NCBI RefSeq assembly: GCF_002563855.1
Contig: NZ_PDJQ01000001.1
Coordinates: 992,001 to 1,056,000, forward strand
From: Tepidiforma thermophila
GTDB taxonomy: Bacteria > Chloroflexota > Dehalococcoidia > Tepidiformales > Tepidiformaceae
Direction of reading: 5' to 3'
Length of the DNA stretch: 64,000 bases
Part shown: in pieces, positions 19,333-46,800 of the stretch
How positions within the stretch are numbered: position 1 is the first letter of the stretch
Layout: each line of letters begins with the position of its first letter
Translations under genes and position numbers: made by a program
The notes under the pieces: model-generated
Seen by the model: the letters and a program-made list of their open reading frames with translations, nothing else
Told to the model about the DNA's origin: nothing
Database searches by the model: none

Positions 19333-20163
19333 GTGTCCGATGTCCTCCTCGAGCGCCGCGACGGCGTCGCGCTCATCACCCTCAACCGCCCCGAAACCCT
19401 GAACGCCATGGGCGGCGACCTCGTGCCCCGGCTCGCCGAGACCCTCGCCGACGTCGAAGCCGACCCCGCCGTCCGCTGCGTCGCCATCACCGGCGCCGGC
19501 CGCGCCTTCTGCGCCGGCGGCGATATCCGCGCCATGCAGGAGCGGAACGACCGCATCGCCGCCGCAGCCGCCAGCGAAGGCCCCGGCGCCGTCATCGCCG
19601 AATTCGACCGTCTCGTCGCCGAACTCCGCCAGCGCCACCGCGAGATCTCCCTCCGCCTCCACACGATGCCGAAGCCCGTCGTCGCCCTCGTGAACGGCCC
19701 GGCCGTCGGCGCCGGCTTCAGCATCGCCCTCGCCTGCGACATCCGCCTCGCCTCCGACCGCGCCCGCTTCGGCGCTGCCTTCCGCAACGTCGGCCTCCCC
19801 GGCGATTTCGGCGGCTCCTACTTCCTCCAGCGCCTCTGCGGCGCCGGCATCGCCCGCGAACTCTACTTCACCGCCGAAATCATCGACGCCGCCCGCGCCC
19901 TCGAGCTCCGCATCGTCAACCGCGTCATCCCCCACGACGAGCTCCTCGCGCAGGGCCTCGACTTCTGCCGCCGCCTCGCCGAAGGCCCGACCGGCGCCTA
20001 CGCCCGCATGAAGGAAAACCTGAACGTCGCCGAAACCGCCACCCTCGAGCAGCTCCTCGACCAGGAGGCGCTCCACATGCGCATCGCCGGCTTCTCCGCC
20101 GACTCCCGCGAAGCCGTCGCCGCCTTCCTCGAAAAGCGCGAACCCCGCTTCATCGGCCGCTGA
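19333..20163 (+). CDS. Crotonase-family protein, PaaG-like enoyl-CoA isomerase
   Basis: 276 residues. Oxyanion-hole segments GAGRAFCAGGDIRAM (about 53) and NGPAVGAGFSIALACDIRLAS (about 119) are intact. Both Glu residues that hydrate enoyl-CoA in classic hydratases are replaced: Ser in GAGFSIAL and Phe in GAAFRNVGL. An Asp in GLPGDFGGSYFL matches the Asp used by PaaG-type ring-1,2-epoxyphenylacetyl-CoA isomerases, so isomerisation is more likely than hydration. GTG start with CGGAGG 8 nt upstream. No other aromatic-degradation genes lie nearby; the pathway is open. Confidence 0.85.
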   Translation: MSDVLLERRDGVALITLNRPETLNAMGGDLVPRLAETLADVEADPAVRCVAITGAGRAFCAGGDIRAMQERNDRIAAAAASEGPGAVIAEFDRLVAELRQRHREISLRLHTMPKPVVALVNGPAVGAGFSIALACDIRLASDRARFGAAFRNVGLPGDFGGSYFLQRLCGAGIARELYFTAEIIDAARALELRIVNRVIPHDELLAQGLDFCRRLAEGPTGAYARMKENLNVAETATLEQLLDQEALHMRIAGFSADSREAVAAFLEKREPRFIGR

Positions 20164-20173
20164 GCCGGCCCCC

Positions 20174-20611
20174 TCACTGCAGGTGCACAATCTCCATGCC
20201 GCCCCAGCGGTCGGCCAGGTACTCCGCCACCAGCCGCCGGTGGCACTGGTCCGGCGTCGCCTCGCTGCACAGGAGCACGGCTCCGTCAATGAGCTCGCGC
20301 GGGACCCGCTCTTCGATCCTCCGCTCGCGCATCAGCCGCAGAAACTCCTCCTCGTACCAGCTCCACGGCCGCCGCTCCTTCTGAACCCCGGCGAGCAGCT
20401 CCGGCGTCGGCGCGAGCTGCGGTTCGTGCACATAGCCGATGCCGAGAATCGCATCCAGGAAGTGCTCCAGGTCGTCCCGCCTGGTGAAACCGGCGAGCTG
20501 GGAAGAGTTGTTCAGCCGCACATCAACGAGCCGACTCGCCCCCGCCCGGCCAATCATCTCGAAGAACTGGCGTGCTGATTTTTTCGTGAAGCCGATCGTC
20601 AGAACGCGCAT
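20174..20611 (-). CDS. DUF488 family protein
   Basis: 145 residues. The N-terminal VLTIGFTKKSARQFFEMI and RLVDVRLNNSSQ, and the C-terminal LLCSEATPDQCHRRLVAEYL with conserved Cys and His, match DUF488. No biochemical role is established; the Cys-His motif hints at metal or redox chemistry. Converges with the crotonase gene (10-bp gap). No clear Shine-Dalgarno beyond a G-rich stretch. Confidence 0.88.
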   Translation of the reverse strand: MRVLTIGFTKKSARQFFEMIGRAGASRLVDVRLNNSSQLAGFTRRDDLEHFLDAILGIGYVHEPQLAPTPELLAGVQKERRPWSWYEEEFLRLMRERRIEERVPRELIDGAVLLCSEATPDQCHRRLVAEYLADRWGGMEIVHLQ

Positions 20612-20831
20612 CGCCGAAACCCCCGCGAGTCCACCGTCCCCGCTCCGCGGACGGCCGTCGCAGCGGACGCCCGCACGGCCGCGGCCGGGCAGAGGCCGGC
20701 ATGCTACCACACGCGGCTGGCTGCCCGCCCCGCGGCGGTTTGGTCCGTGGTCACCTGCGTCGTACGCCCCCGTGAACCCCCGCCCGGCATCTGGTACAGT
20801 CCGCGGGCACCCCCTGAGGAGAACCGCAGCC

Positions 20832-21656
20832 GTGCTCCCCCTCGAAGGCAAAACCGCCATCATTACCGGCGGCGCCCGCGGCATCGGCGCCGGCATCGCC
20901 GCCGTCATGGCCCGCCAGGGCGCCCGCGTCGCCATCCTCGACCTCGATGGCGAGCAGGCCGCAGCCACCGCCGCCACCCTCCCCACCCCCGGGCTCGGCC
21001 TCGCCTGCGACGTCATCGTCGAAGACCAGCTCCGCGAGGCCGTCCGCGCCGCCGTTGATGCCCTCGGCGGTCTCGACATCATGGTCAACAACGCCGGCGC
21101 CGGCCGCGGCCCCGTCGACCTCTCTGCGCTCCCCGCAGCCGCGGCGGGCGGCGGCCGCGTCGAAGACATGGCCCCCGCCGCCTGGGACGAACAGCTCGCC
21201 CAGAACCTCCGCTCCACCTTCCTCGGCACGAAGTACGCCCTTCCCTACCTCAAGCAGCGCGGCGGTGCCATCATCAATATCGCCAGCATCGCAGCCCTCC
21301 AGGCCGCCCCAACCCTTCCCGCCTACGCCGCCGCCAAGGCTGGCGTCATCTCCCTCACCAAAAGCTGCGCGCTCGAATACGCGCCGTTCGATATCCGCGT
21401 CAACGCCATCTGCCCCGGTTTCCTCTGGACCCGCGCCTGGGAGGGCATGGCCGCCATGATGCAGCGCACCGTGCCCCGCTTCGCCGGCCTCTCCCCGCGC
21501 GACATCTTCCTCGAAGTGGTCAAAACCGGCGTCCCCCTCGGCCGCGAGCAAACCCCGGAGGACATCGGCGAACTCGCCGCCTTCCTCGCCAGTCCCGCCG
21601 CCCGCAACATCACCGGCCAGGCCATCGCCGTCGACGGCGGAATCACCCTCCGCTGA
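20832..21656 (+). CDS. Short-chain dehydrogenase/reductase (SDR)
   Basis: 274 residues. Cofactor motif TGGARGIGAGIA (about 12-23), Asp after beta-2 (ILDLDGEQ), favouring NAD(H), NNAGAG, and catalytic Ser (NIASIAAL) with YAAAK. The C-terminal GQAIAVDGGITLR is typical of FabG-like classical SDRs. Substrate unknown. GTG 20832 follows GAGGAG by 10 nt, and TACAGT about 35 bp upstream may be the -10. A longer open frame upstream overlaps the divergent DUF488 gene and is rejected. Confidence 0.9.
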   Translation: MLPLEGKTAIITGGARGIGAGIAAVMARQGARVAILDLDGEQAAATAATLPTPGLGLACDVIVEDQLREAVRAAVDALGGLDIMVNNAGAGRGPVDLSALPAAAAGGGRVEDMAPAAWDEQLAQNLRSTFLGTKYALPYLKQRGGAIINIASIAALQAAPTLPAYAAAKAGVISLTKSCALEYAPFDIRVNAICPGFLWTRAWEGMAAMMQRTVPRFAGLSPRDIFLEVVKTGVPLGREQTPEDIGELAAFLASPAARNITGQAIAVDGGITLR

Positions 21657-21667
21657 CAGCTCCCCGC

Positions 21668-22325
21668 TCCCTCCTCCCTCCGGGCGGCGTGGCGGCCGGG
21701 CGGGTCTCCTCCCTCCTCCCTCCTCCCCTGGCGGCGCGGGGATGGTGGGTCGGGGCTCCCTCCTCCCTCCTCCCCTGGCGGCGCGGGGATGGTGGGTCGG
21801 GGCTCCCTCCTCCTTCCTCCCCTGGCGGTGCGGGGATGGTGGGTCGGGGCTCCCTCCTCCCTCCTCCCCTGGCGGCGCGGGGATGGTGGGTCGGGGCTCC
21901 CTCCTCCTTCCTCCCCTGGCGGCGCGGGGATGGTGGGTCGGGGCTCCCTCCTCCCTCCTCCCTCCTCCCTTGGCGGCGCGGGGATGGTGGGTCGGGGCTC
22001 CCTCCTCCCTCGTCCCTTGGCGGCGCGGGGATGGTGGGTCGGGGCTCCCTCCTCCCTCCTCCCCTGGCGGCGCGGGGATGGTGGGGCAGGGCTCCCTCCT
22101 CCCTCCTCCCCCGGGGCGGTCGTGTGGCCGGGGCAGGGCTCCCTCCTCCCCCGGGGCGGGGCGTGCTGGCGGGGCAGGGCTCCCTCCTCCCTTGGCGGCG
22201 CGGTCGGGCGTCCGGGGCAGGGCTCCCTCCTCCCTCCTCCCCCGGGGCGGGGCGTGCTGGCGGGGCAGGGCTCCCTCCTCCCTTCTCCCTTGGGGTAGTG
22301 CGGCGGCCGGGCGGGTCTCCTCCCT
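21668..22325. repeat. GC-rich minisatellite, about 14 units of ~47 bp
   Basis: Fills the gap between convergent SDR and CAP genes. Each unit joins a C-rich half (CCCTCCTCCCTCCTCCCC) to a G-rich half ending in GGGTCGGGGCT; later units switch to GGGGCGGGGCGTGCTGGC. Unit lengths vary (41-54 bp, mostly 47), so no reading frame is kept, and long open frames across it are artefacts. Both strands carry G-runs able to form quadruplexes. Confidence 0.93.
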
Positions 22326-22326
22326 C

Positions 22327-23079
22327 CTACCGCTCCGCCACGATGTTCGGCACCAGCGCCCGCCGCGACAGGTTCGGGTTCGATGACGGCAACGACGCCC
22401 CGCCCGGCGTCGGCGTCGCAGTCGGCGGCAGTGTCGGCGTCGCCGGAGGGGTCGGCTGGCCGCCGGGAGGCGTCGGCTGACTCCCCGGCTGCGTCGGCGT
22501 GGCAGTGGGCGTCGCCGCCGGGAAGGTCGCCGTGGCCGTTGGCGTCGGCGGCTGCGGGGAATCCCACGGCTCGTTCGAGTCGTCATACGTCCCGAAATCG
22601 AGCGTCCAGTAGCCGCCAGCCCGCCCCACGCCCGCAACCACCCACATCGAGCGCAGCATGTTCTCCCGGTGCCCCCTCGTCGAATTCACCCACAGGGTGA
22701 ACGCCTGCTGCGCGCTCCCCGCAATCGCCAGGTTCTCCCCCGCGCCCATTGTCGCGTAGCCGCAATCCTTCACCCGCTGGAAGGGCGAACGCCCCAGGCT
22801 GTCGGTGTGGCTGAAGTACCCCTTCGCCGCCATGTCCTCCGACATCCACGCCGCCGCCCGCGAGAGGTTCGGCGACGCCTTGAGCGGCGCTACCCCGTTC
22901 GCAACGCGGAACTCGTTCACCAGCCGCAGCAGCTCCTGCTCCGCCGCATCCAGCGCCTGCGAATTGGTCGAACAGTTCGTCAGCGCGTGCGCCGGCTGCG
23001 AACCCCCGCCCCACGCCCAGCTCCCCGCTGCCGCCGCCAGCAGCAGGGAACCCGCCATCGCCCAGGCAATCCGTCGCAT
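22327..23079 (-). CDS. Secreted CAP/SCP-domain protein with Thr/Pro-rich tail
   Basis: 250 residues. Signal peptide at 1-34 (MRRIAWAMAGSLLLAAAAG), then a CAP domain: LLRLVNEFRVANGVAPLK, GYFSHTDSLGRSPFQRV and GENLAIAG, with GHRENML, the His/Glu positions of the CAP cavity. The last 75 residues are Thr/Pro/Gly-rich, like the linker of the secreted nuclease at 6.4 kb. Bacterial CAP proteins are extracellular and their roles (wall binding, lipid or protease-like) are mostly unknown. An overlapping GTG at 23085 is possible. Ends right at the minisatellite. Confidence 0.87.
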   Translation of the reverse strand: MRRIAWAMAGSLLLAAAAGSWAWGGGSQPAHALTNCSTNSQALDAAEQELLRLVNEFRVANGVAPLKASPNLSRAAAWMSEDMAAKGYFSHTDSLGRSPFQRVKDCGYATMGAGENLAIAGSAQQAFTLWVNSTRGHRENMLRSMWVVAGVGRAGGYWTLDFGTYDDSNEPWDSPQPPTPTATATFPAATPTATPTQPGSQPTPPGGQPTPPATPTLPPTATPTPGGASLPSSNPNLSRRALVPNIVAER

Positions 23080-23152
23080 CGTCACCCCCGGCCGGCGGGG
23101 AAGCCGGCGTCACGCTGGTGTCGCCTCCATCTTGGCCGCCGACGTGCGAACG

Positions 23153-23169
23153 AAAAACCCCGGCCGGGG
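23153..23169 (-). terminator. Hairpin plus T-run downstream of fic
   Basis: On the minus strand CCCCGGCCGGGG (23158-23169) is followed by TTTTT (23153-23157). It separates fic from the CAP gene. The stem is short. Confidence 0.55.
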
Positions 23170-23221
23170 CACGCCTCTTACGATTTACCAACAATTTACG
23201 CCCGACATCGCCCCGCAGCAG

Positions 23222-23287
23222 CTGTTCCCAAACTGCAAATACCGCCGCCCGCTATTCGCAGTTTCCGCCCTTTCCGCAAATAACGCA
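23222..23287. repeat. 66-bp direct repeat, copy 1 (downstream of fic)
   Basis: Identical to 24466-24531 except for one base (A/G at position 62). It contains an inverted repeat AAACTGCAAATA-N11-TATTCGCAGTTT (23230-23264; one mismatch between arms) and a further half-site CGCAAATA. It begins 5 bp beyond the fic stop. Confidence 0.97.
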
Positions 23288-23292
23288 TCAGC

Positions 23293-24453
23293 TCACCCTG
23301 GTGGCTCTGTTCCCTCGGTAAGGATGTCGAGGTACTCGCGGTAGACGTATACCCGATCGCGCTGCCGTCCCGTCACCTCGCGGACAACTCCGAGTTCCGC
23401 CAGGCGGCTCAGGCTCCGTTCCACCGTCGAAAAGCTCAGTTGCGCATCCTCAGCGATCCGCGTGGCCGTCGAGAGAACCCTGTTCCGGAGCACTTCCAGC
23501 ACGCGCAGCATGCTGCCGGCTGCCCGCCCGCTCCCCCGCACCCGCTCGGCGTCCCGCTCGAACAGCTCCACGAGCCGGTGCGCGGTCCCCACAGCCCCGT
23601 TCGCTGTCTGCTCGACACCGGTGAAGAAGAACGCCAGCCACTGTTCCCAGTCGCCTCGCTCCCGTACCAGGTTGAGGAGCCGGTAATACTCCCGCCGATG
23701 CTGTTTGAAGTAAAGGGACAGGTACAGCAGCGGTTGCGTCAGCAGGCCCGCCTCGACCAGCACGAGCGCGATCAGCAGCCGGCCGACCCGCCCGTTTCCA
23801 TCGAGGAACGGGTGGATAGTCTCGAACTGCACGTGCGCGAGGCCTGCCCTGGTCAGCGCTCCCCCCGGTGCAGGTGCGTTGAGAAACCGCTCCAGCTGAG
23901 CCATACACGGTTCCACCTGCTCCGGCGGCGGAGGCACGAACTCGGCGGTTGCCGGGTTCGCCCCTCCGATCCAGACTGGCTCGCGCCGGAACTCGCCAGG
24001 CCTCCGCGACGACCCGCGCCCCGATGCAAGCAGGCGGCGATGCACCTCGCGGATCAAACGGTTGGAGAGGGGCAGCCCGCTGCGCAACAGCTCCAGCCCG
24101 TGGTTCAGCGCCGACACGTAGTTCGACACCTCCCTCACGTCGTCGAGCGGGACCCCGGGCGCCTGGTCGAGTTCGAACAGCAGCAAGTCCGAGAGCGACG
24201 ATTGCGTCCCCTCGATCTGGCTCGAAAGCACTGCCTCCCGCCGAACGTACCCGTAGAGGAAGAGTGTGGGATTTGGCAGCAGGGCCGAAATGGCATCCAG
24301 CCTGCCGATGGCCACGAGCGCACGTTCGAGCAGCGACTGCAGCTCACCGCCCAGGTCGAGCGGCGGCTCAGGCGGCAGCGGAAACGGAACGAACCCGTAG
24401 AAGGTCGTCCCGCCCCATGAGATCAGCTCGAGCCGTCCGGTTTCGCGTTCCAG
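23293..24453 (-). CDS. Fic-domain AMPylator-like protein with winged-helix C-terminus
   Basis: 386 residues if started at CTG 24453. Catalytic motif HPFLDGNGRVGR is complete; SSQIEGTQSS supplies the inhibitory (S/T)xxxE(G/N) helix on the N-terminal side (class II). The C-terminal 70 residues (RIAEDAQLSFSTVERSLSRL) form a winged helix, so it may bind DNA. Known Fic enzymes transfer AMP to target proteins. No ATG/GTG/TTG precedes the N-terminal homologous segment SWGGTTFYGFVPFPLPP; CTG 24453 has GGGAGG 7 nt upstream, while GTG 24315 would remove 46 residues. Flanked by 66-bp direct repeats. Confidence 0.85.
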   Translation of the reverse strand: MERETGRLELISWGGTTFYGFVPFPLPPEPPLDLGGELQSLLERALVAIGRLDAISALLPNPTLFLYGYVRREAVLSSQIEGTQSSLSDLLLFELDQAPGVPLDDVREVSNYVSALNHGLELLRSGLPLSNRLIREVHRRLLASGRGSSRRPGEFRREPVWIGGANPATAEFVPPPPEQVEPCMAQLERFLNAPAPGGALTRAGLAHVQFETIHPFLDGNGRVGRLLIALVLVEAGLLTQPLLYLSLYFKQHRREYYRLLNLVRERGDWEQWLAFFFTGVEQTANGAVGTAHRLVELFERDAERVRGSGRAAGSMLRVLEVLRNRVLSTATRIAEDAQLSFSTVERSLSRLAELGVVREVTGRQRDRVYVYREYLDILTEGTEPPG

Positions 24454-24465
24454 CGGCGCGCCTCC

Positions 24466-24531
24466 CTGTTCCCAAACTGCAAATACCGCCGCCCGCTATT
24501 CGCAGTTTCCGCCCTTTCCGCAAATAGCGCA
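24466..24531. repeat. 66-bp direct repeat, copy 2 (upstream of fic)
   Basis: Second copy of the element at 23222. Its inverted repeat occupies 24474-24508, ending 21 bp before the proposed fic start, where an operator would sit. The outer edge is 4 bp from the rhomboid stop codon. Confidence 0.97.
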
Positions 24532-24535
24532 CCCC

Positions 24536-25318
24536 CTACCGTCGCCGCCGCCCCACCCCCGTCATCGCCACCAGCGCCCCGAACAGGAACCCTCCGATGT
24601 GCGCGAACCACGCCACCCCGCCCCCGGTCGACGCCGTGTCCACGATCGTCGCGTACCCCGCAAACAGGTTCTGCAGGAACCACAGCCCGATCATCAGGAA
24701 CGCCGGCACCGGCAGCGGAATGAACAGCAGAATGAAGAACGGGATCACCACGTGCACCGTCGACCGCGGAAACCACACCAGGTACGCACCCAGCACCCCC
24801 GCCACCGCCCCGCTTGCCCCCACCACCGGCACCACGCTCGTCGGGTCCATCAGTCCCTGCACGAGCGACGCAACCACCCCCGAGGCCAGGTAGAACAACA
24901 GGAACCCGAGCTTCCCCAGTCGGTCCTCGATGTTGTCGGCGAATACCCACAGGAACAGCATGTTCCCCAGGATGTGCAGCCACCCGCCGTGGATGAACAC
25001 CGCCGTCACGATCGCCAGCAGCGCCTCGCGCGCGGAGCTCCCGCTCAGTCCCGAGGTGCCCCTGATGGTGTCGAAAAACTCCTTCGGCTGGAACCCCCAC
25101 CGGCAGATGAACTCGTTCAGGTCGTTCGGCGGCGCCCGGAAGCCGTAGCATGGGCCGGTCGTCTGCTCCACGAACCGCTGCGTCGCCCCCGGCGTTGGCC
25201 GCGGCACCGTCGCGTCCATCCCCAGCATGGCGATGAACACGGCGAAGTTCGCCAGGATGATCGCGTAGGTCACCCACGGCGTTGCATGCCGCCGCGTGCT
25301 GTCGCCGACCGGGATCAC
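24536..25318 (-). CDS. Rhomboid-family intramembrane serine protease
   Basis: 260 residues with about six to seven hydrophobic helices. The catalytic Ser is in GASGAVAG near residue 167 and the His in WFAHIGGF near 237; the family's HGGWLHILGNM motif is present. Rhomboids cut membrane proteins within the bilayer. GTG 25318 overlaps the stop of the upstream phosphatase (GTGA), so the pair is translationally coupled. Substrate unknown. Confidence 0.92.
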   Translation of the reverse strand: MIPVGDSTRRHATPWVTYAIILANFAVFIAMLGMDATVPRPTPGATQRFVEQTTGPCYGFRAPPNDLNEFICRWGFQPKEFFDTIRGTSGLSGSSAREALLAIVTAVFIHGGWLHILGNMLFLWVFADNIEDRLGKLGFLLFYLASGVVASLVQGLMDPTSVVPVVGASGAVAGVLGAYLVWFPRSTVHVVIPFFILLFIPLPVPAFLMIGLWFLQNLFAGYATIVDTASTGGGVAWFAHIGGFLFGALVAMTGVGRRRR

Positions 25319-25941
25319 CCGAGCCCGTCCAGGTGCGCCGCGTCGTTCATCCGCACCACCGCCAGCCGCCCGTTCCGCTCCTCGACCTCGAACAGCGCGC
25401 AATGCCGGACGTCGAAGCGGAACACGTGCGTCTCCGGCATCCCCAGCACCATCGAAACGAGGCAGTTCAGCATCGTGCCGTGCCCCACAACCAGCACGGT
25501 GCCGCCCGGGTGCGCCGCGGCAATCTCCCGCAGCGCCGCGAAGGTCCGCACCCGCACCATCGTCGTCGTCTCCCCGCCGGGCGGCTGCCATGCCGGGTCC
25601 TCAGCCTCCATCTGCGCGAACCGCTGCGGGTCGCGGCGCCGCACATCCTCTTCCCGCTCCAGCTCCCACGCACCGTAGTGCCGCTCGCGCAGCTCCGCCC
25701 GCGGCACCGGCGCAATGCCGCGTTCGCCCAGCGCCAGCCTCGCCGTCGCAATCGCCCGCCCAAGGTCCGAAGTGTAACAGGCATCGATCCGCGTCCCGGC
25801 CAGCCGCCGCCCCAGCGCCCGCGCCTGCTCCCGGCCCAGCGGCGTCAGCTCCGTCTCGCTGTGCCCGCAGAACCGCCCCTCAACGTTCGCCACCGTCTGC
25901 CCGTGCCGCGTCAGCAGCAGCCGCGTCACCCGTCGTTCCAC
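25315..25941 (-). CDS. Histidine phosphatase (phosphoglycerate mutase-like)
   Basis: About 208 residues. TRHGQTVANVEGRFCG gives the phosphohistidine; ELRERHYGAWE has the acid/base Glu; VVGHGTMLNCLV carries the second catalytic His. The family hydrolyses or moves phosphate on small metabolites (for example CobC, GpmB). GTG 25941 is preferred because TATGCT sits 7 nt upstream, overlapping an in-frame ATG at 25953 used in the longer reading. Coupled to the rhomboid gene; upstream lies the second minisatellite. Confidence 0.87.
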   Translation of the reverse strand: MERRVTRLLLTRHGQTVANVEGRFCGHSETELTPLGREQARALGRRLAGTRIDACYTSDLGRAIATARLALGERGIAPVPRAELRERHYGAWELEREEDVRRRDPQRFAQMEAEDPAWQPPGGETTTMVRVRTFAALREIAAAHPGGTVLVVGHGTMLNCLVSMVLGMPETHVFRFDVRHCALFEVEERNGRLAVVRMNDAAHLDGLG

Positions 25942-25948
25942 GCGCGCC

Positions 25949-25954
25949 AGCATA
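25949..25954 (-). promoter_or_regulatory. Leaderless-type -10 box (TATGCT) for the histidine phosphatase
   Basis: TATGCT on the minus strand ends 7 nt before GTG 25941 and overlaps the alternative ATG 25953. Confidence 0.5.
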
Positions 25955-25996
25955 GCCGCTCATCGACCCCCGCGGAATCTCCCGGGCACCCCCGCT

Positions 25997-26380
25997 CCCC
26001 GCTCCCTCCTCCCTCCTCCCTCCTCCCTCGGGGCGGGGCGTGGTGGCGGGGCAGGGCTCCCTCCTCCCTCGGGGAGGTGGCGGTGGTGGTGGCAGGGCTC
26101 CCTCCTCCCTCCTCCCTCCTCCCTCCTCCCTCGGGGCGGGGTGTGCTGGCGGGGCAGGGCTCCCTCCTCCCTCCTCCCTCCTCCCTCCTCCCTCGGGGCG
26201 GGGCGTGCTGGCGGGGCAGGGCTCCCTCCTCCCTCCTCCCCCGGGGCGGGGCGTGCTGGCGGGGCAGGGCTCCCTCCTCCCTCCTCCCCCGGGGCGGGGC
26301 GTGCTGGCGGGGCAGGGCTCCCTCCTCCCTCGGGGAGGTGGCGGTGGTGGTGGCAGGGCTCCCTCCTCCCTCCTCCCTTC
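25997..26380. repeat. GC-rich minisatellite, about 7 units of 41-62 bp
   Basis: Same family as the array at 21.7 kb. Units pair (CCCTCCT)n with GGGGCGGGGCGTGCTGGC or GGGGAGGTGGCGGTGGTGG. It separates the divergent phosphatase and XdhC genes and ends next to the xdhC -10 box. No gene is seen inside. Confidence 0.92.
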
Positions 26381-26383
26381 CCC

Positions 26384-26389
26384 TACACT
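26384..26389 (+). promoter_or_regulatory. Leaderless-type -10 box (TACACT) for the XdhC gene
   Basis: TACACT ends 6 nt before ATG 26396, directly after the minisatellite. Confidence 0.6.
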
Positions 26390-26395
26390 CTCGCT

Positions 26396-27208
26396 ATGCT
26401 CGAACTGACACAACGGCTCATCGACGCCGCCGAAGGAGGCGCCCCCGTCCTCCTCGCCGTGCTCGTCGACCCCGGCCCCCTCCAGCTCCCACCCGGCGCA
26501 CGCCTCCTCGTCGAGCCCGACGGCCGCACCCTCGGCACCCTCGGCGACCCCGCCCTCGATGCCGCCGTCGCCCGCGCCGCCCCCGGCCTCTTCTCCCGCC
26601 ACGGCGCCCGCACCCTCTACGCCGCCGGCGAAACCCTCGCTGAGCGCCACACCGAAGGCGCCCCCGCCATCTACGTCGAAGTCGTCGAAGCCCGGCCCAC
26701 CTTCCTCGTCGTCGGCGCCGGCCACATCGGCCGCGCCCTCGCCCGCCTCGCGAACTTCCTCGGCTACCGCGTTGCCGTCATCGACGACCGTCCCGATTTC
26801 GCCGACCCCGCCCTCATCCCCGAGGCCGACGAGGTCATCTGCGACGATTTCGAGGCCGCCCTCGAACGCTTCCCCATCGGCCCCTCGACCACCATCGTCC
26901 TCGTCACCCGTGGCCACAAACAGGACGAACTCTCCCTGCGCAAATGCCTCGGCCGCGGCGCCGCCTACCTCGGCATGATCGGCTCCCGCAGGCGCACCAC
27001 CGCCGTCCTCGACCACCTCCGCGCCGAAGGCTTCCCCGAGACCGAACTCGACCGCGTCCGCACCCCCATCGGGCTCGATATCGGCGCCGAAACGCCCGAA
27101 GAGATCGCCGTCAGCATCGTCGCCGAGGTCATCCTCCTCCGCCGGGGCGGAACCGGCGCCCCGATGTACTACCGCGCCCGGCGGAGCGCTACTCCAGCGC
27201 GCTCCTGA
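26396..27208 (+). CDS. XdhC/CoxI family protein
   Basis: 270 residues: a short N-terminal XdhC_CoxI part (GARLLVEPDGRTLGTLGDP) and a C-terminal Rossmann domain FLVVGAGHIGRALARLANFL with YLGMIGSRRRTTAVLDHLRA, the XdhC_C hallmark. XdhC inserts sulfurated molybdenum cofactor into xanthine-dehydrogenase-type enzymes. No molybdenum enzyme is encoded nearby, so its client is elsewhere. The start is fixed by the -10 box 6 nt upstream. Its 3' end overlaps the convergent murT by 20 bp. Confidence 0.88.
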   Translation: MLELTQRLIDAAEGGAPVLLAVLVDPGPLQLPPGARLLVEPDGRTLGTLGDPALDAAVARAAPGLFSRHGARTLYAAGETLAERHTEGAPAIYVEVVEARPTFLVVGAGHIGRALARLANFLGYRVAVIDDRPDFADPALIPEADEVICDDFEAALERFPIGPSTTIVLVTRGHKQDELSLRKCLGRGAAYLGMIGSRRRTTAVLDHLRAEGFPETELDRVRTPIGLDIGAETPEEIAVSIVAEVILLRRGGTGAPMYYRARRSATPARS

Positions 27209-28568
27209 CGGCCCCTCTGCGCACCAGCTCCGCCCGCAGGTCGAGCATCGCCGTGTACGTCGGGATGACGAACACCCGCTCCCCCGGCGACGTCCCCGCA
27301 AGGATCGCATCGAGCAGCGCCCCCGGCCCCCGCACCACCGCCAGCGGCGCCGGCCAGCCGGCGTAATCGAACCGCAGCGCGAGGTCCTCCGCCCGGTCGC
27401 CGCCGGCCCAGCACCGCGCGACCCGCCCCGCCAGCAGCTCGTAGTCGACGTCCCAAATCCAGCTCACATCCTGCCCATCCGCGAAACGGTCGTTCAACAG
27501 CACCGCCACTGCCAGGTCCGGCCCGCCGGCCTGCTCGAGCAGCAGCAGCACCTGGTTGGCACCCGCCGGGTTCTTCGTCAGCAGCAGCCAGAGTTCGCGC
27601 CCCTCCAGCGCCACCACCTCCTGCCGGCCGAACGCCGCCCGCGCATCGCCCAGCCCGGCCCGGATCGCCGCCGCAGGCAGCCCGAGCGCACGCCCGGCCG
27701 CAATCGCCGCCAGCGCGTTGTACACGTTGTACAGCCCGGCGAGGCGCATCGCCGCGATGCCCAGCCCGGGCACCTCCCAGCGCGTTCGGTCGAGCCCGAG
27801 CTCCACCCTCCGCCCCTCCGTCTCCGGCGCCGGTCGGGCCCGGCCGCACTGCGTGCACCGCCACCAGCCCACATGCGCAAAGTACCGCCGCTCATAGGTG
27901 AAATCGCCGCCGCAGCCGCACCACCGCGCATCCGTCGCCCCGGCAGCCTCGCGGTGCAGCTCGGGCGCATCCAGCCCGAACCAGTGGACCCGTCCCGGCC
28001 AGCCCTCGGCCAGCCCCGCCACCGATGGGTCGTCCGTGTTCAGCACCAGCGTCGTGCCCGGCCCTGCCGCGGCCAGCCCTTCGCGCAGTATGCCAGCCAC
28101 CGTATCCACCTCGCCGTACCGGTCGAGCTGGTCGCGGAACAGGTTCGTCACAACCATGACCGTCGGGTCGAGCGCCCGGACCGCCGCCGGGAAGGTCGCC
28201 TCATCGGTCTCGAACACCCCGGTCAGCTGAGCCGCGCCCGGGATCTTGCCCCGCCAGTCCGCCCGCGCGGCCAGCGTGCTCGCGAACCCGCGGACCAGGT
28301 TGCTCCCCTCGCGGTTGTGCACGTACCCCCGGCCCGCCGCCTCCAGCATCGCCGCCAGCAGCCGCGCCGTCGTCGTCTTCCCGTTTGTGCCCGTCACCAG
28401 CACCCGGCCGCCGCCGAGCTGCCGCCCCAGCTGCGCCACCACCCCGGGGTCGATCCGCGTGGCGACGAGCCCCGGGAGCGCCGTCCCGCTTCCCCGCCGC
28501 AGGGCCCGCGTCGCCGCCCCGGTCAGCTTCGCGGCCGCGACGGCCCCCATCGTCCGAACCGGTGCCAT
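27189..28568 (-). CDS. murT: MurT-like Mur ligase (lipid II isoglutaminyl synthase subunit)
   Basis: 459 residues. N-terminal ATP motif VTGTNGKTTTARLL, central Mur ligase domain, and a four-Cys zinc ribbon (CGCG ... CTQC) characteristic of MurT; the C-terminal part has the DUF1727 region. MurT with the glutaminase GatD amidates the D-Glu of lipid II. GatD usually lies next to murT, but here the neighbours are an M50 protease and XdhC, so GatD must be elsewhere or absent. ATG 28568 chosen; no strong ribosome site. Converges with xdhC. Confidence 0.85.
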   Translation of the reverse strand: MAPVRTMGAVAAAKLTGAATRALRRGSGTALPGLVATRIDPGVVAQLGRQLGGGRVLVTGTNGKTTTARLLAAMLEAAGRGYVHNREGSNLVRGFASTLAARADWRGKIPGAAQLTGVFETDEATFPAAVRALDPTVMVVTNLFRDQLDRYGEVDTVAGILREGLAAAGPGTTLVLNTDDPSVAGLAEGWPGRVHWFGLDAPELHREAAGATDARWCGCGGDFTYERRYFAHVGWWRCTQCGRARPAPETEGRRVELGLDRTRWEVPGLGIAAMRLAGLYNVYNALAAIAAGRALGLPAAAIRAGLGDARAAFGRQEVVALEGRELWLLLTKNPAGANQVLLLLEQAGGPDLAVAVLLNDRFADGQDVSWIWDVDYELLAGRVARCWAGGDRAEDLALRFDYAGWPAPLAVVRGPGALLDAILAGTSPGERVFVIPTYTAMLDLRAELVRRGAVRSALE

Positions 28569-34680: not shown

Positions 34681-34729
34681 CCCCGTTCCCCGTTCCCCGC
34701 TCCCCGTTCCCCGTTCCCCGCTCCCCGCC
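34681..34729. repeat. Heptamer array (CCCCGTT/CCCCGCT)
   Basis: Seven tandem 7-bp units alternate CCCCGTT and CCCCGCT just after the DUF2269-like stop. The complementary strand has regularly spaced GGGG runs. Confidence 0.9.
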
Positions 34730-46763: not shown

Positions 46764-46771
46764 CCACCGCT

Positions 46772-46799
46772 CCAACCTCCAACCTCCAACCTCCCACCT
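46772..46799. repeat. Heptamer array CCAACCT x3 plus variant
   Basis: Three CCAACCT units and one CCCACCT lie directly before the first ATCAGGG element of the flagellar promoter region. Confidence 0.85.
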
Positions 46800-46800
46800 C

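What the first reader, a model, noticed from the sequence alone, without database searches (positions are those of the whole stretch)
21668..22325. Strand-alternating G-rich minisatellite in a convergent gap
Around 14 units, each with C-tracts (quadruplex on the minus strand) beside G-tracts (quadruplex on the plus strand). The main 47-bp unit changes gradually to a GGGGCGGGGCGTGCTGGC variant at the right end, showing array evolution by duplication. It may act as a transcription barrier between colliding genes.
Basis: partly seen in the sequence, partly recalled or inferred. Interest (0 to 1): 0.5.

Follow-up and report, generated by a model that had tools for sequence, protein, structure and literature searches.

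The report
Origin-side seven-base repeats forming minisatellite
A 670-base repeat array fills the gap between two genes of a hot-spring bacterium; it is probably not a special roadblock but one of about thirty related repeat sites built from seven-base units that crowd around the likely replication origin and mostly point away from it.

Summary
The array is real: window 21657-22326, 13 complete units plus an end unit, mostly 47 bp, from the stop codon of an SDR gene to that of a CAP-domain gene. Each unit is a run of 7-mers (CTCCCTC) plus a G-rich spacer. The "quadruplex on both strands / transcription barrier" reading is weak: canonical G4 motifs do not exceed shuffles in array 1, RNA folds are no more stable than shuffles, no terminator-like site was found, and of 22 array sites examined 6 are convergent, 9 divergent. 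It belongs to a heptanucleotide repeat family of Tepidiforma. In the nearest relative the same gap is 34 bp of heptad seed; two others fill it with different heptads. Two right-end spacers are identical to units of a second array 3.7 kb away. The surprising part: 32 of 33 placed CTCCCTC-doublet loci lie within 520 kb of a six-site parS cluster in an rpmH-rnpA-yidD-yidC-jag-parAB neighbourhood (the inferred oriC), and 29 of 31 with a majority orientation read away from it; another heptad in T. flava does not follow this polarity. GC skew around that origin is inverted (leading strand C-rich). Known kind (heptameric intergenic repeats), origin-centred variant.

The parts
21657..22326 (+). Array 1: composite minisatellite, 13 complete units plus ends, CTCCCTC heptad runs + G-rich spacer; heptad strand is +
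21709..22091 (+). Homogenised core of array 1: eight units with spacer GGCGGCGCGGGGATGGTGGGTCGGGG and near variants (one unit of 54 bp = 47+7)
22139..22270 (+). Right part of array 1: three units, two of which have a spacer identical to array 2 units
25989..26384 (+). Array 2: same family, unit lengths 41, 48, 55, 62 (steps of 7), in the divergent gap between a histidine-phosphatase-family gene and an XdhC-family gene
34681..34727 (+). Short heptad array CCCCGTT/CCCCGCT, 6.7 units (same 7-nt class)
46770..46800 (+). Short heptad array CTCCAAC, 4.4 units (same 7-nt class)
20832..21656 (+). Left flanking gene, short-chain dehydrogenase (PF13561/PF00106), reads into array 1
22327..23085 (-). Right flanking gene, CAP-domain protein (PF00188), reads into array 1 (missed by my own gene caller, but conserved in the genus)
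25318..25953 (-). Gene left of array 2, histidine phosphatase family (PF00300)
26396..27205 (+). Gene right of array 2, XdhC family (PF13478)

Best explanation
Array 1 is an expanded composite minisatellite grown from a short heptanucleotide seed in an intergenic gap. Heptads (CTCCCTC and relatives such as GCTCCCN) gain and lose units by 7-bp slippage (inferred from 7-bp steps). Once a G-rich spacer is caught between heptad runs, the heptad-plus-spacer unit is amplified and homogenised by unequal recombination or gene conversion (inferred from within-locus similarity), and units are also copied into neighbouring arrays (shared spacers shown; array 2 to array 1 is the likelier direction, inferred). 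The CTCCCTC family is nearly confined to the origin side of the chromosome and mostly reads away from the inferred oriC (shown for the hits that were listed). For this family orientation is probably set when seeds arise, because the leading strand is C-rich in this genus (inferred; it does not hold for all heptads). The origin-side restriction is not explained by skew strength or by a lack of long gaps elsewhere and suggests that whatever creates or keeps these heptads works mainly near oriC (inferred). I expect no dedicated function at this gap; effects on transcription, if any, are by-products.
For: Same gap in relatives: in G004 (SDR 95% identical) it is 34 bp of heptad seed between the stop codons (CCGCTCCCTGCTCCCCGCTCCCCGCTCCTCCCTC) with the same right border as in G000 and a similar left one; G002 and G005 have about 30 bp without heptads; G001 and G003 fill it with other heptads. 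Array 2 exists in G004 as a shorter version with a related spacer. Unit lengths step by 7. Spacers are more alike within loci (0.57) than between (0.38); the one exact sharing between loci is array 1/array 2 (91 spacers); loci under 15 kb apart have more similar spacers than other pairs (0.68 v 0.56; 7 pairs of 18 loci, one of them arrays 1/2; permutation P 0.001). Of tandem runs with lag 5-9 in sampled DNA, 16 of 16 (G000) and 4 of 4 (G004) have lag 7. Origin: 32 of 33 loci within 520 kb of parS in G000, 18 of 19 in G004, 16 of 16 in G001; orientation away from parS at 29 of 31 (2 ties aside), 18 of 19, 13 of 16 (137 of 139 plus hits and 59 of 59 minus hits of the G000 doublet placed). Farther than about 510 kb from parS, 483 kb sampled hold 75 gaps of 150-1500 bp but 0 heptad runs.
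Against: The loci of the three genomes are partly shared by descent, so they are not independent tests; the 520 kb and 15 kb limits were drawn after seeing the data; 1 G000 and 1 G004 locus lie outside, and two G000 plus hits were not listed. Polarity is not general for all heptads: in T. flava (G001) the listed GGAGGTT hits (100 of 280) are on the plus strand on both sides of parS, G-rich on the C-rich side, and GGGATGA arrays in G000 are also G-rich on the CTCCCTC strand. The array's net GC skew is near zero (-0.05), so skew alone does not set its orientation. Loss rather than gain in G004 is not excluded. oriC is inferred, not measured, and skew is weak (0.02-0.09) in samples within about 90 kb of parS.
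Confidence: 0.68

Rival explanations
1. Transcription barrier: the array ends both converging transcripts through quadruplex, hairpin or Rho (C-rich rut-like RNA from the SDR side).
For: Lies exactly between two converging stop codons; long pyrimidine runs on the SDR-sense strand far beyond shuffles, the type of RNA that Rho binds (recalled). Convergent sites are 6 of 22 against 10 of 60 neighbour pairs in the window, a slight excess.
Against: No terminator-like site; folds no better than shuffles on either strand; canonical G4 not enriched in array 1; 9 of the 22 sites are divergent; three of five relatives have about 30 bp here.
Confidence: 0.12
2. Replication-linked sequence signal: origin-centred, polar heptads act as orientation or domain marks, for example for SMC/condensin or a fork-related process, comparable in logic to KOPS or AIMS (recalled).
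For: Centred on parS with mostly consistent polarity in three genomes; orientation not forced by net array skew; not explained by gap supply.
Against: Arrays are gained or lost at single sites between close species; main heptads differ between species and GGAGGTT in G001 does not follow the polarity; G002 nearly lacks them (2 GCTCCCN triplets, no CTCCCTC 19-mer), and G005 (72% complete) has none found.
Confidence: 0.12
3. Assembly artefact.
For: Repeat arrays are prone to mis-assembly; reads were not available.
Against: Related arrays in other assemblies, including the complete T. flava chromosome, and a shorter array 2 at the orthologous site in G004; units are diverged and orderly.
Confidence: 0.04

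Closest known systems
G-rich heptameric intergenic repeats (GGGNATC type) of Xanthomonas and Nostoc, Rehm et al. 2015, PMC4692102 (abstract and passages read)
   Same: 7-nt tandem units, G-rich on one strand, over-represented in non-coding regions, many loci, variable unit number
   Different: Those repeats are described as spread all over the genome, under-represented between divergent ORFs and with a preference for four units; here the CTCCCTC family crowds within about 0.5 Mb of the inferred origin, is mostly polar, is often in divergent gaps, and has composite heptad-plus-spacer units
TAACTGA heptamer direct repeats of Beggiatoaceae and cyanobacteria, MacGregor 2015, PMC4679880 (passages read)
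   Same: 7-nt intergenic direct repeats; differences between two Cyanothece strains mostly in 7-nt steps; in a small Microcystis sample the eight sets between stop codons all had one chromosomal orientation, a hint of polarity noted there
   Different: In the Maribeggiatoa genome mostly upstream of start codons in one orientation; A/T-richer unit; no origin-centred pattern in the passages read
Cyanobacterial STRR heptanucleotides (Calothrix; the name is recalled, the repeats are mentioned in PMC4692102)
   Same: Several different tandem heptanucleotides in one genome
   Different: Chromosome-scale pattern and sequence not compared here
Bacterial VNTR minisatellites (general, recalled)
   Same: Tandem 40-60 bp unit array with homogenised core and variant edges
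   Different: Unit is itself built from heptads whose number varies in steps of 7, and spacers are shared with a neighbouring locus

Membership tests
Heptameric intergenic simple-sequence repeats (STRR-like) | tandem units of 7 nt, varying by whole units | tested here: met
   pyrimidine runs 14/21/28/35 nt; array 2 unit lengths 41 + multiples of 7; only lag 7 found among lags 5-9 in samples
Heptameric intergenic simple-sequence repeats (STRR-like) | dispersed at many intergenic sites of one genome | tested here: met
   33 placed loci with the CTCCCTCCTCCC doublet in G000; of 22 array sites examined with a simple gene caller, 21 lie between called genes and one (L036) overlaps a called gene; six further loci with two or more doublets were not examined for context
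Heptameric intergenic simple-sequence repeats (STRR-like) | spread over the whole chromosome (as described in PMC4692102; a feature of that example, not of the class) | tested here: not met
   32 of 33 placed loci within 520 kb of parS; hence filed as a variant
Canonical G-quadruplex repeats | four G3 tracts with loops 1-7, enriched over shuffles | tested here: inconclusive
   array 1 not enriched, array 2 minus strand enriched
Intrinsic transcription terminator | GC-rich stem followed by T run | tested here: not met
   0 sites in 21400-22600
CRISPR array | unique spacers between constant repeats | tested here: not met
   spacers are near-identical in the core of the array and the heptad number varies
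CRISPR array | cas genes nearby | not tested
   no search for cas genes was made
Structured RNA family | match to an Rfam model | tested here: not met
   no match at gathering threshold in 20000-27500
KOPS/AIMS-like polar motifs | strand-polar along replichores | tested here: met
   CTCCCTC doublet: 29 of 31 loci with a majority orientation in G000; not for GGAGGTT in G001
KOPS/AIMS-like polar motifs | density rising towards the terminus (recalled) | tested here: not met
   heptad runs found only within 510 kb of the inferred origin in G000 samples

The most novel reading that the evidence does not exclude
In Tepidiforma a heptad-generating process acts in a replication-dependent way within about half a megabase of oriC, laying down 7-mer repeats, polar for the CTCCCTC family, in a chromosome whose leading strand is C-rich instead of G-rich; the heptads would be a footprint of an unusual replication or nucleoid organisation, perhaps used as an origin-domain mark.
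Probability: 0.22. Interest if true: 0.8.

Novelty: new variant of a known kind. Interest (0 to 1): 0.5.

Why it matters
Heptameric repeats are over-represented in several bacterial groups without a cause that I know of. Here their period, place and, for one family, strand are tied to the inferred replication origin, which turns an old curiosity into a testable link with replication or origin-domain organisation. The inverted GC skew also means that an origin call by skew alone would land half a chromosome away in this genus.

Tried and rejected
Coding function: 47 is not a multiple of 3 and the gene caller sees no gene there (the mechanical ORFs are no evidence). CRISPR, Rfam RNA, intrinsic terminator: see membership test. 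Wider search of the unit: GGCAGGGCTCCCTCCTCCC occurs only in arrays 1 and 2 among 61 genomes searched; GGGGCAGGGCTCCCTCCTCCC has 0 matches in genome contigs (the own genome may be left out there). At first I took the skew pole near 0.56 Mb for the terminus, because leading strands are usually G-rich; 16S and dnaA directions, parS and the gene neighbourhood reversed that. TTATNCACA gave no cluster of DnaA boxes. Gene strand bias was too weak to help. Skew as the only cause of orientation: not enough for composite arrays (net skew -0.05). Lack of long gaps far from the origin: not the cause. The reversed-pattern control of the genome search is not a chance control for CTCCCTC and GGAGSYT, since these heptads read nearly the same backwards (25/12 control hits in G000 and 181/108 in G001); it is for GCTCCCN and parS (0). 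Literature: eight searches listed no paper whose title or abstract start is about heptads or inverted skew in Tepidiforma (one search showed 15 of 21 papers holding that name); most subscription papers are not held.

Full report
What is there. The gap between a short-chain dehydrogenase gene (ends 21656, +) and a CAP-domain gene (ends 22327, -) is filled from stop codon to stop codon by a 670-bp array. Tandem Repeats Finder gives period 47 with 8.6 copies at 92%. Parsing gives 13 complete units plus an end unit: each is a C/T run of 14-28 nt made of CTCCCTC heptads and a G-rich spacer of 26-29 nt (one unit parses as run 14 plus spacer 33 because of a point change in a heptad). Eight units are 47 bp, one is 54, which is 47 plus one heptad. 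In array 2 (26002-26378) the seven complete units are 41, 48, 55 and 62 bp, all 41 plus multiples of 7, with C/T runs of 14, 21, 28 and 35 nt and 27-nt spacers.

Location, unit count and period hold. The right-end variant is not a gradual change: the spacer GGGGCGGGGCGTGCTGGCGGGGCAGGG occurs twice, with another variant between, and is identical to array 2 spacers; it is the only exact spacer shared between loci among 91 spacers compared, 89 from this genome and 2 from G004. Quadruplex potential was tested against 300 dinucleotide shuffles. For four G3 tracts with loops of 1-7, array 1 has 0 nt on plus and 24 nt on minus (shuffle means 65 and 26), array 2 has 0 and 109 nt (0 of 300 shuffles reach 109). 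With loops up to 12, array 1 stays below nearly all shuffles, array 2 is reached by 20 (plus) and 18 (minus) of 300. G2 motifs exceed shuffles on plus in both arrays and are at chance on minus. RNA folds of two stretches of array 1, both strands, are not more stable than shuffles (z 0.06 to 3.1, positive meaning less stable), and no terminator-like site was found.

A family, not a single site. The doublet CTCCCTCCTCCC occurs 198 times in the 2.74-Mb chromosome G000 (139 plus, 59 minus). I placed 196 of them (two plus hits were cut from the listing); they form 33 loci, six of them with a single doublet. Printed arrays show the same plan, heptads plus locus-specific G-rich spacers, often beside other 7-mers such as GCTCCCN, GGGATGA and TGGAGCY. 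In evenly spaced samples plus the window (779 kb of G000) and samples of G004 (500 kb), all tandem runs found with lags 5 to 9 and at least four units have lag 7: 16 of 16 and 4 of 4. Of 22 array sites examined (at least two doublets; six further such loci were not examined), 6 lie in convergent, 9 in divergent and 7 in tandem gaps, one of the tandem ones overlapping a called gene; the caller is simple and missed the CAP gene. Neighbour pairs in the window are 10 convergent, 11 divergent and 39 tandem, not matched for gap length.

Genus. GCTCCCN triplets number 314 in G000, 275 in G004, 99 in G001, 16 in G003, 2 in G002 and 0 in G005, which is 72% complete. G001 and G003 instead have many GGAGSYT triplets (280 and 161, those listed mostly GGAGGTT), one G001 array holding about 72 uninterrupted units.

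The same gap in relatives. G004, whose SDR is 95% identical, has 34 bp here: heptad seed with the same right border as in G000. G002 and G005 have about 30 bp without heptads. G001 and G003 have more than 500 and more than 400 bp, made of other heptads (GGTTGGA, GGGAAGC, CAACTCC) around a palindromic element. Array 2's gap is 178 bp with two spacers in G004 against 442 bp in G000, and one G004 spacer resembles the variant shared by arrays 1 and 2. The simplest order is: array 2 older, array 1 grown from a seed in the G000 line and receiving array 2 units. Loss in G004 is the alternative. Loci under 15 kb apart have more similar spacers than other pairs (permutation P 0.001, 7 pairs of 18 loci; one pair is arrays 1/2 themselves; the 15 kb limit was my choice), which fits local copying.

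Where the origin is. Sampled GC skew is positive from about 1.9 Mb through zero to 0.55 Mb and negative from 0.56 to 1.87 Mb, in genes of either orientation as a rule. A parS pattern (GTTNCACGTGNAAC) occurs six times within about 600 bp at 568.7-569.3 kb and nowhere else in G000; G004 and G001 likewise have one six-site cluster, G003 and G002 one of five sites, G005 none; the reversed control has 0. Next to it lie rpmH, rnpA, yidD, yidC, jag, parA and parB, the usual oriC neighbourhood (recalled). At the cluster the skew of adjacent 1-kb windows jumps from +0.27 to -0.21 in G000, +0.23 to -0.17 in G004 and +0.21 to -0.25 in G001, although the neighbouring genes are on one strand (G000). Against a simple picture, the jump fades within some kilobases and skew is weak in samples within about 90 kb of parS. 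The single 16S match and the best dnaA match (370 kb away in G000) are co-directional with forks leaving this point in G000, G004 and G001. So the origin is very probably here, and the leading strand is C-rich, opposite to the general rule stated in PMC5291525 (abstract and passages read).

Origin-centred heptads. In G000 32 of 33 loci lie within 520 kb of parS (38% of the chromosome) and at 29 of 31 loci with a majority orientation CTCCCTC reads away from the origin (2 ties); with the 19-mer, in G004 18 of 19 and 18 of 19, in G001 16 of 16 and 13 of 16. The 520 kb limit was chosen after seeing the data and the genomes share ancestry, so the binomial values overstate certainty. In the G000 samples all 16 heptad runs fall in the 296 kb sampled within 510 kb and none in the 483 kb beyond; 4 of the 16 are in the window itself; in G004 3 of 4 are within 510 kb. 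Skew is as strong at 1.1-1.3 Mb, where no doublet was placed (two plus hits unplaced), and gaps of 150-1500 bp exist in the far samples (75 in 483 kb, against 52 in 240 kb near the origin). So neither skew strength nor gap supply explains the restriction. Polarity does not extend to every heptad: the 100 of 280 GGAGSYT hits listed for G001 are all on plus and lie on both sides of parS, G-rich on the C-rich side to the right.

Mechanism. Shown: 7-bp steps, within-locus similarity, spacer sharing between neighbouring arrays, presence or absence of an entire array between close species, origin-centred and mostly polar placement of the CTCCCTC family. Inferred: slippage for heptads, unequal recombination or gene conversion for units, orientation inherited from C-rich seeds on a C-rich leading strand, and some origin-linked cause for where heptads arise or persist. 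Not supported: a dedicated convergent transcription barrier.

Comparison with what is known. Heptameric intergenic repeats are known from Xanthomonas and Nostoc (PMC4692102: abstract and passages read) and from Beggiatoaceae and cyanobacteria (PMC4679880: passages read). Those works describe repeats spread over the genome or near start codons; the second notes, in a small Microcystis sample, that eight sets between stop codons all share one chromosomal orientation. I saw no origin-centred pattern in what I read. In PMC10284905, on two Tepidiforma species, the passages found with six terms, among them repeat and GC skew, do not mention such repeats or skew. Hence: new variant of a known kind.

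Noticed in passing
G000 C1:567.6-575.0 kb (locus L149), and L150, L151: Inverted GC skew in Tepidiforma: at the parS/rpmH-rnpA-yidD-yidC-jag-parAB region (genes checked in G000) the leading strand becomes C-rich, opposite to the usual rule; skew-based origin finders would take the terminus for the origin.
   Followed up: partly
window 23222-23287 and 24466-24531: A Fic-family gene (23296-24315) is flanked by 66-bp direct repeats (98% identical); at this place G004 has no Fic match and one similar repeat copy, so the gene may have been gained or lost through the repeats. G001 and G005 do have Fic here.
   Followed up: partly
L153 4200-4800 and L154 4425-4910: In T. flava and KatS3mg064 the same gap holds a palindromic element (GTAGTCGCGGGGCTCCG...CGGAGCCCCGCGACTAC in T. 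flava, a similar one in the other) among heptads, possibly a small mobile element.
   Followed up: no
G001 C1:1351703-1352210: An uninterrupted array of about 72 GGAGGTT heptads in T. flava, G-rich on the C-rich leading strand.
   Followed up: no
G000 C1:940545-941015: The best dnaA match lies about 370 kb from the parS cluster, and no DnaA-box cluster was found with TTATNCACA.
   Followed up: partly
window 26380-26400; L022, L035: At three loci the array ends at a TACACT-like -10 box with a start codon a few bases on, as if it bordered a leaderless promoter (seen by eye).
   Followed up: no
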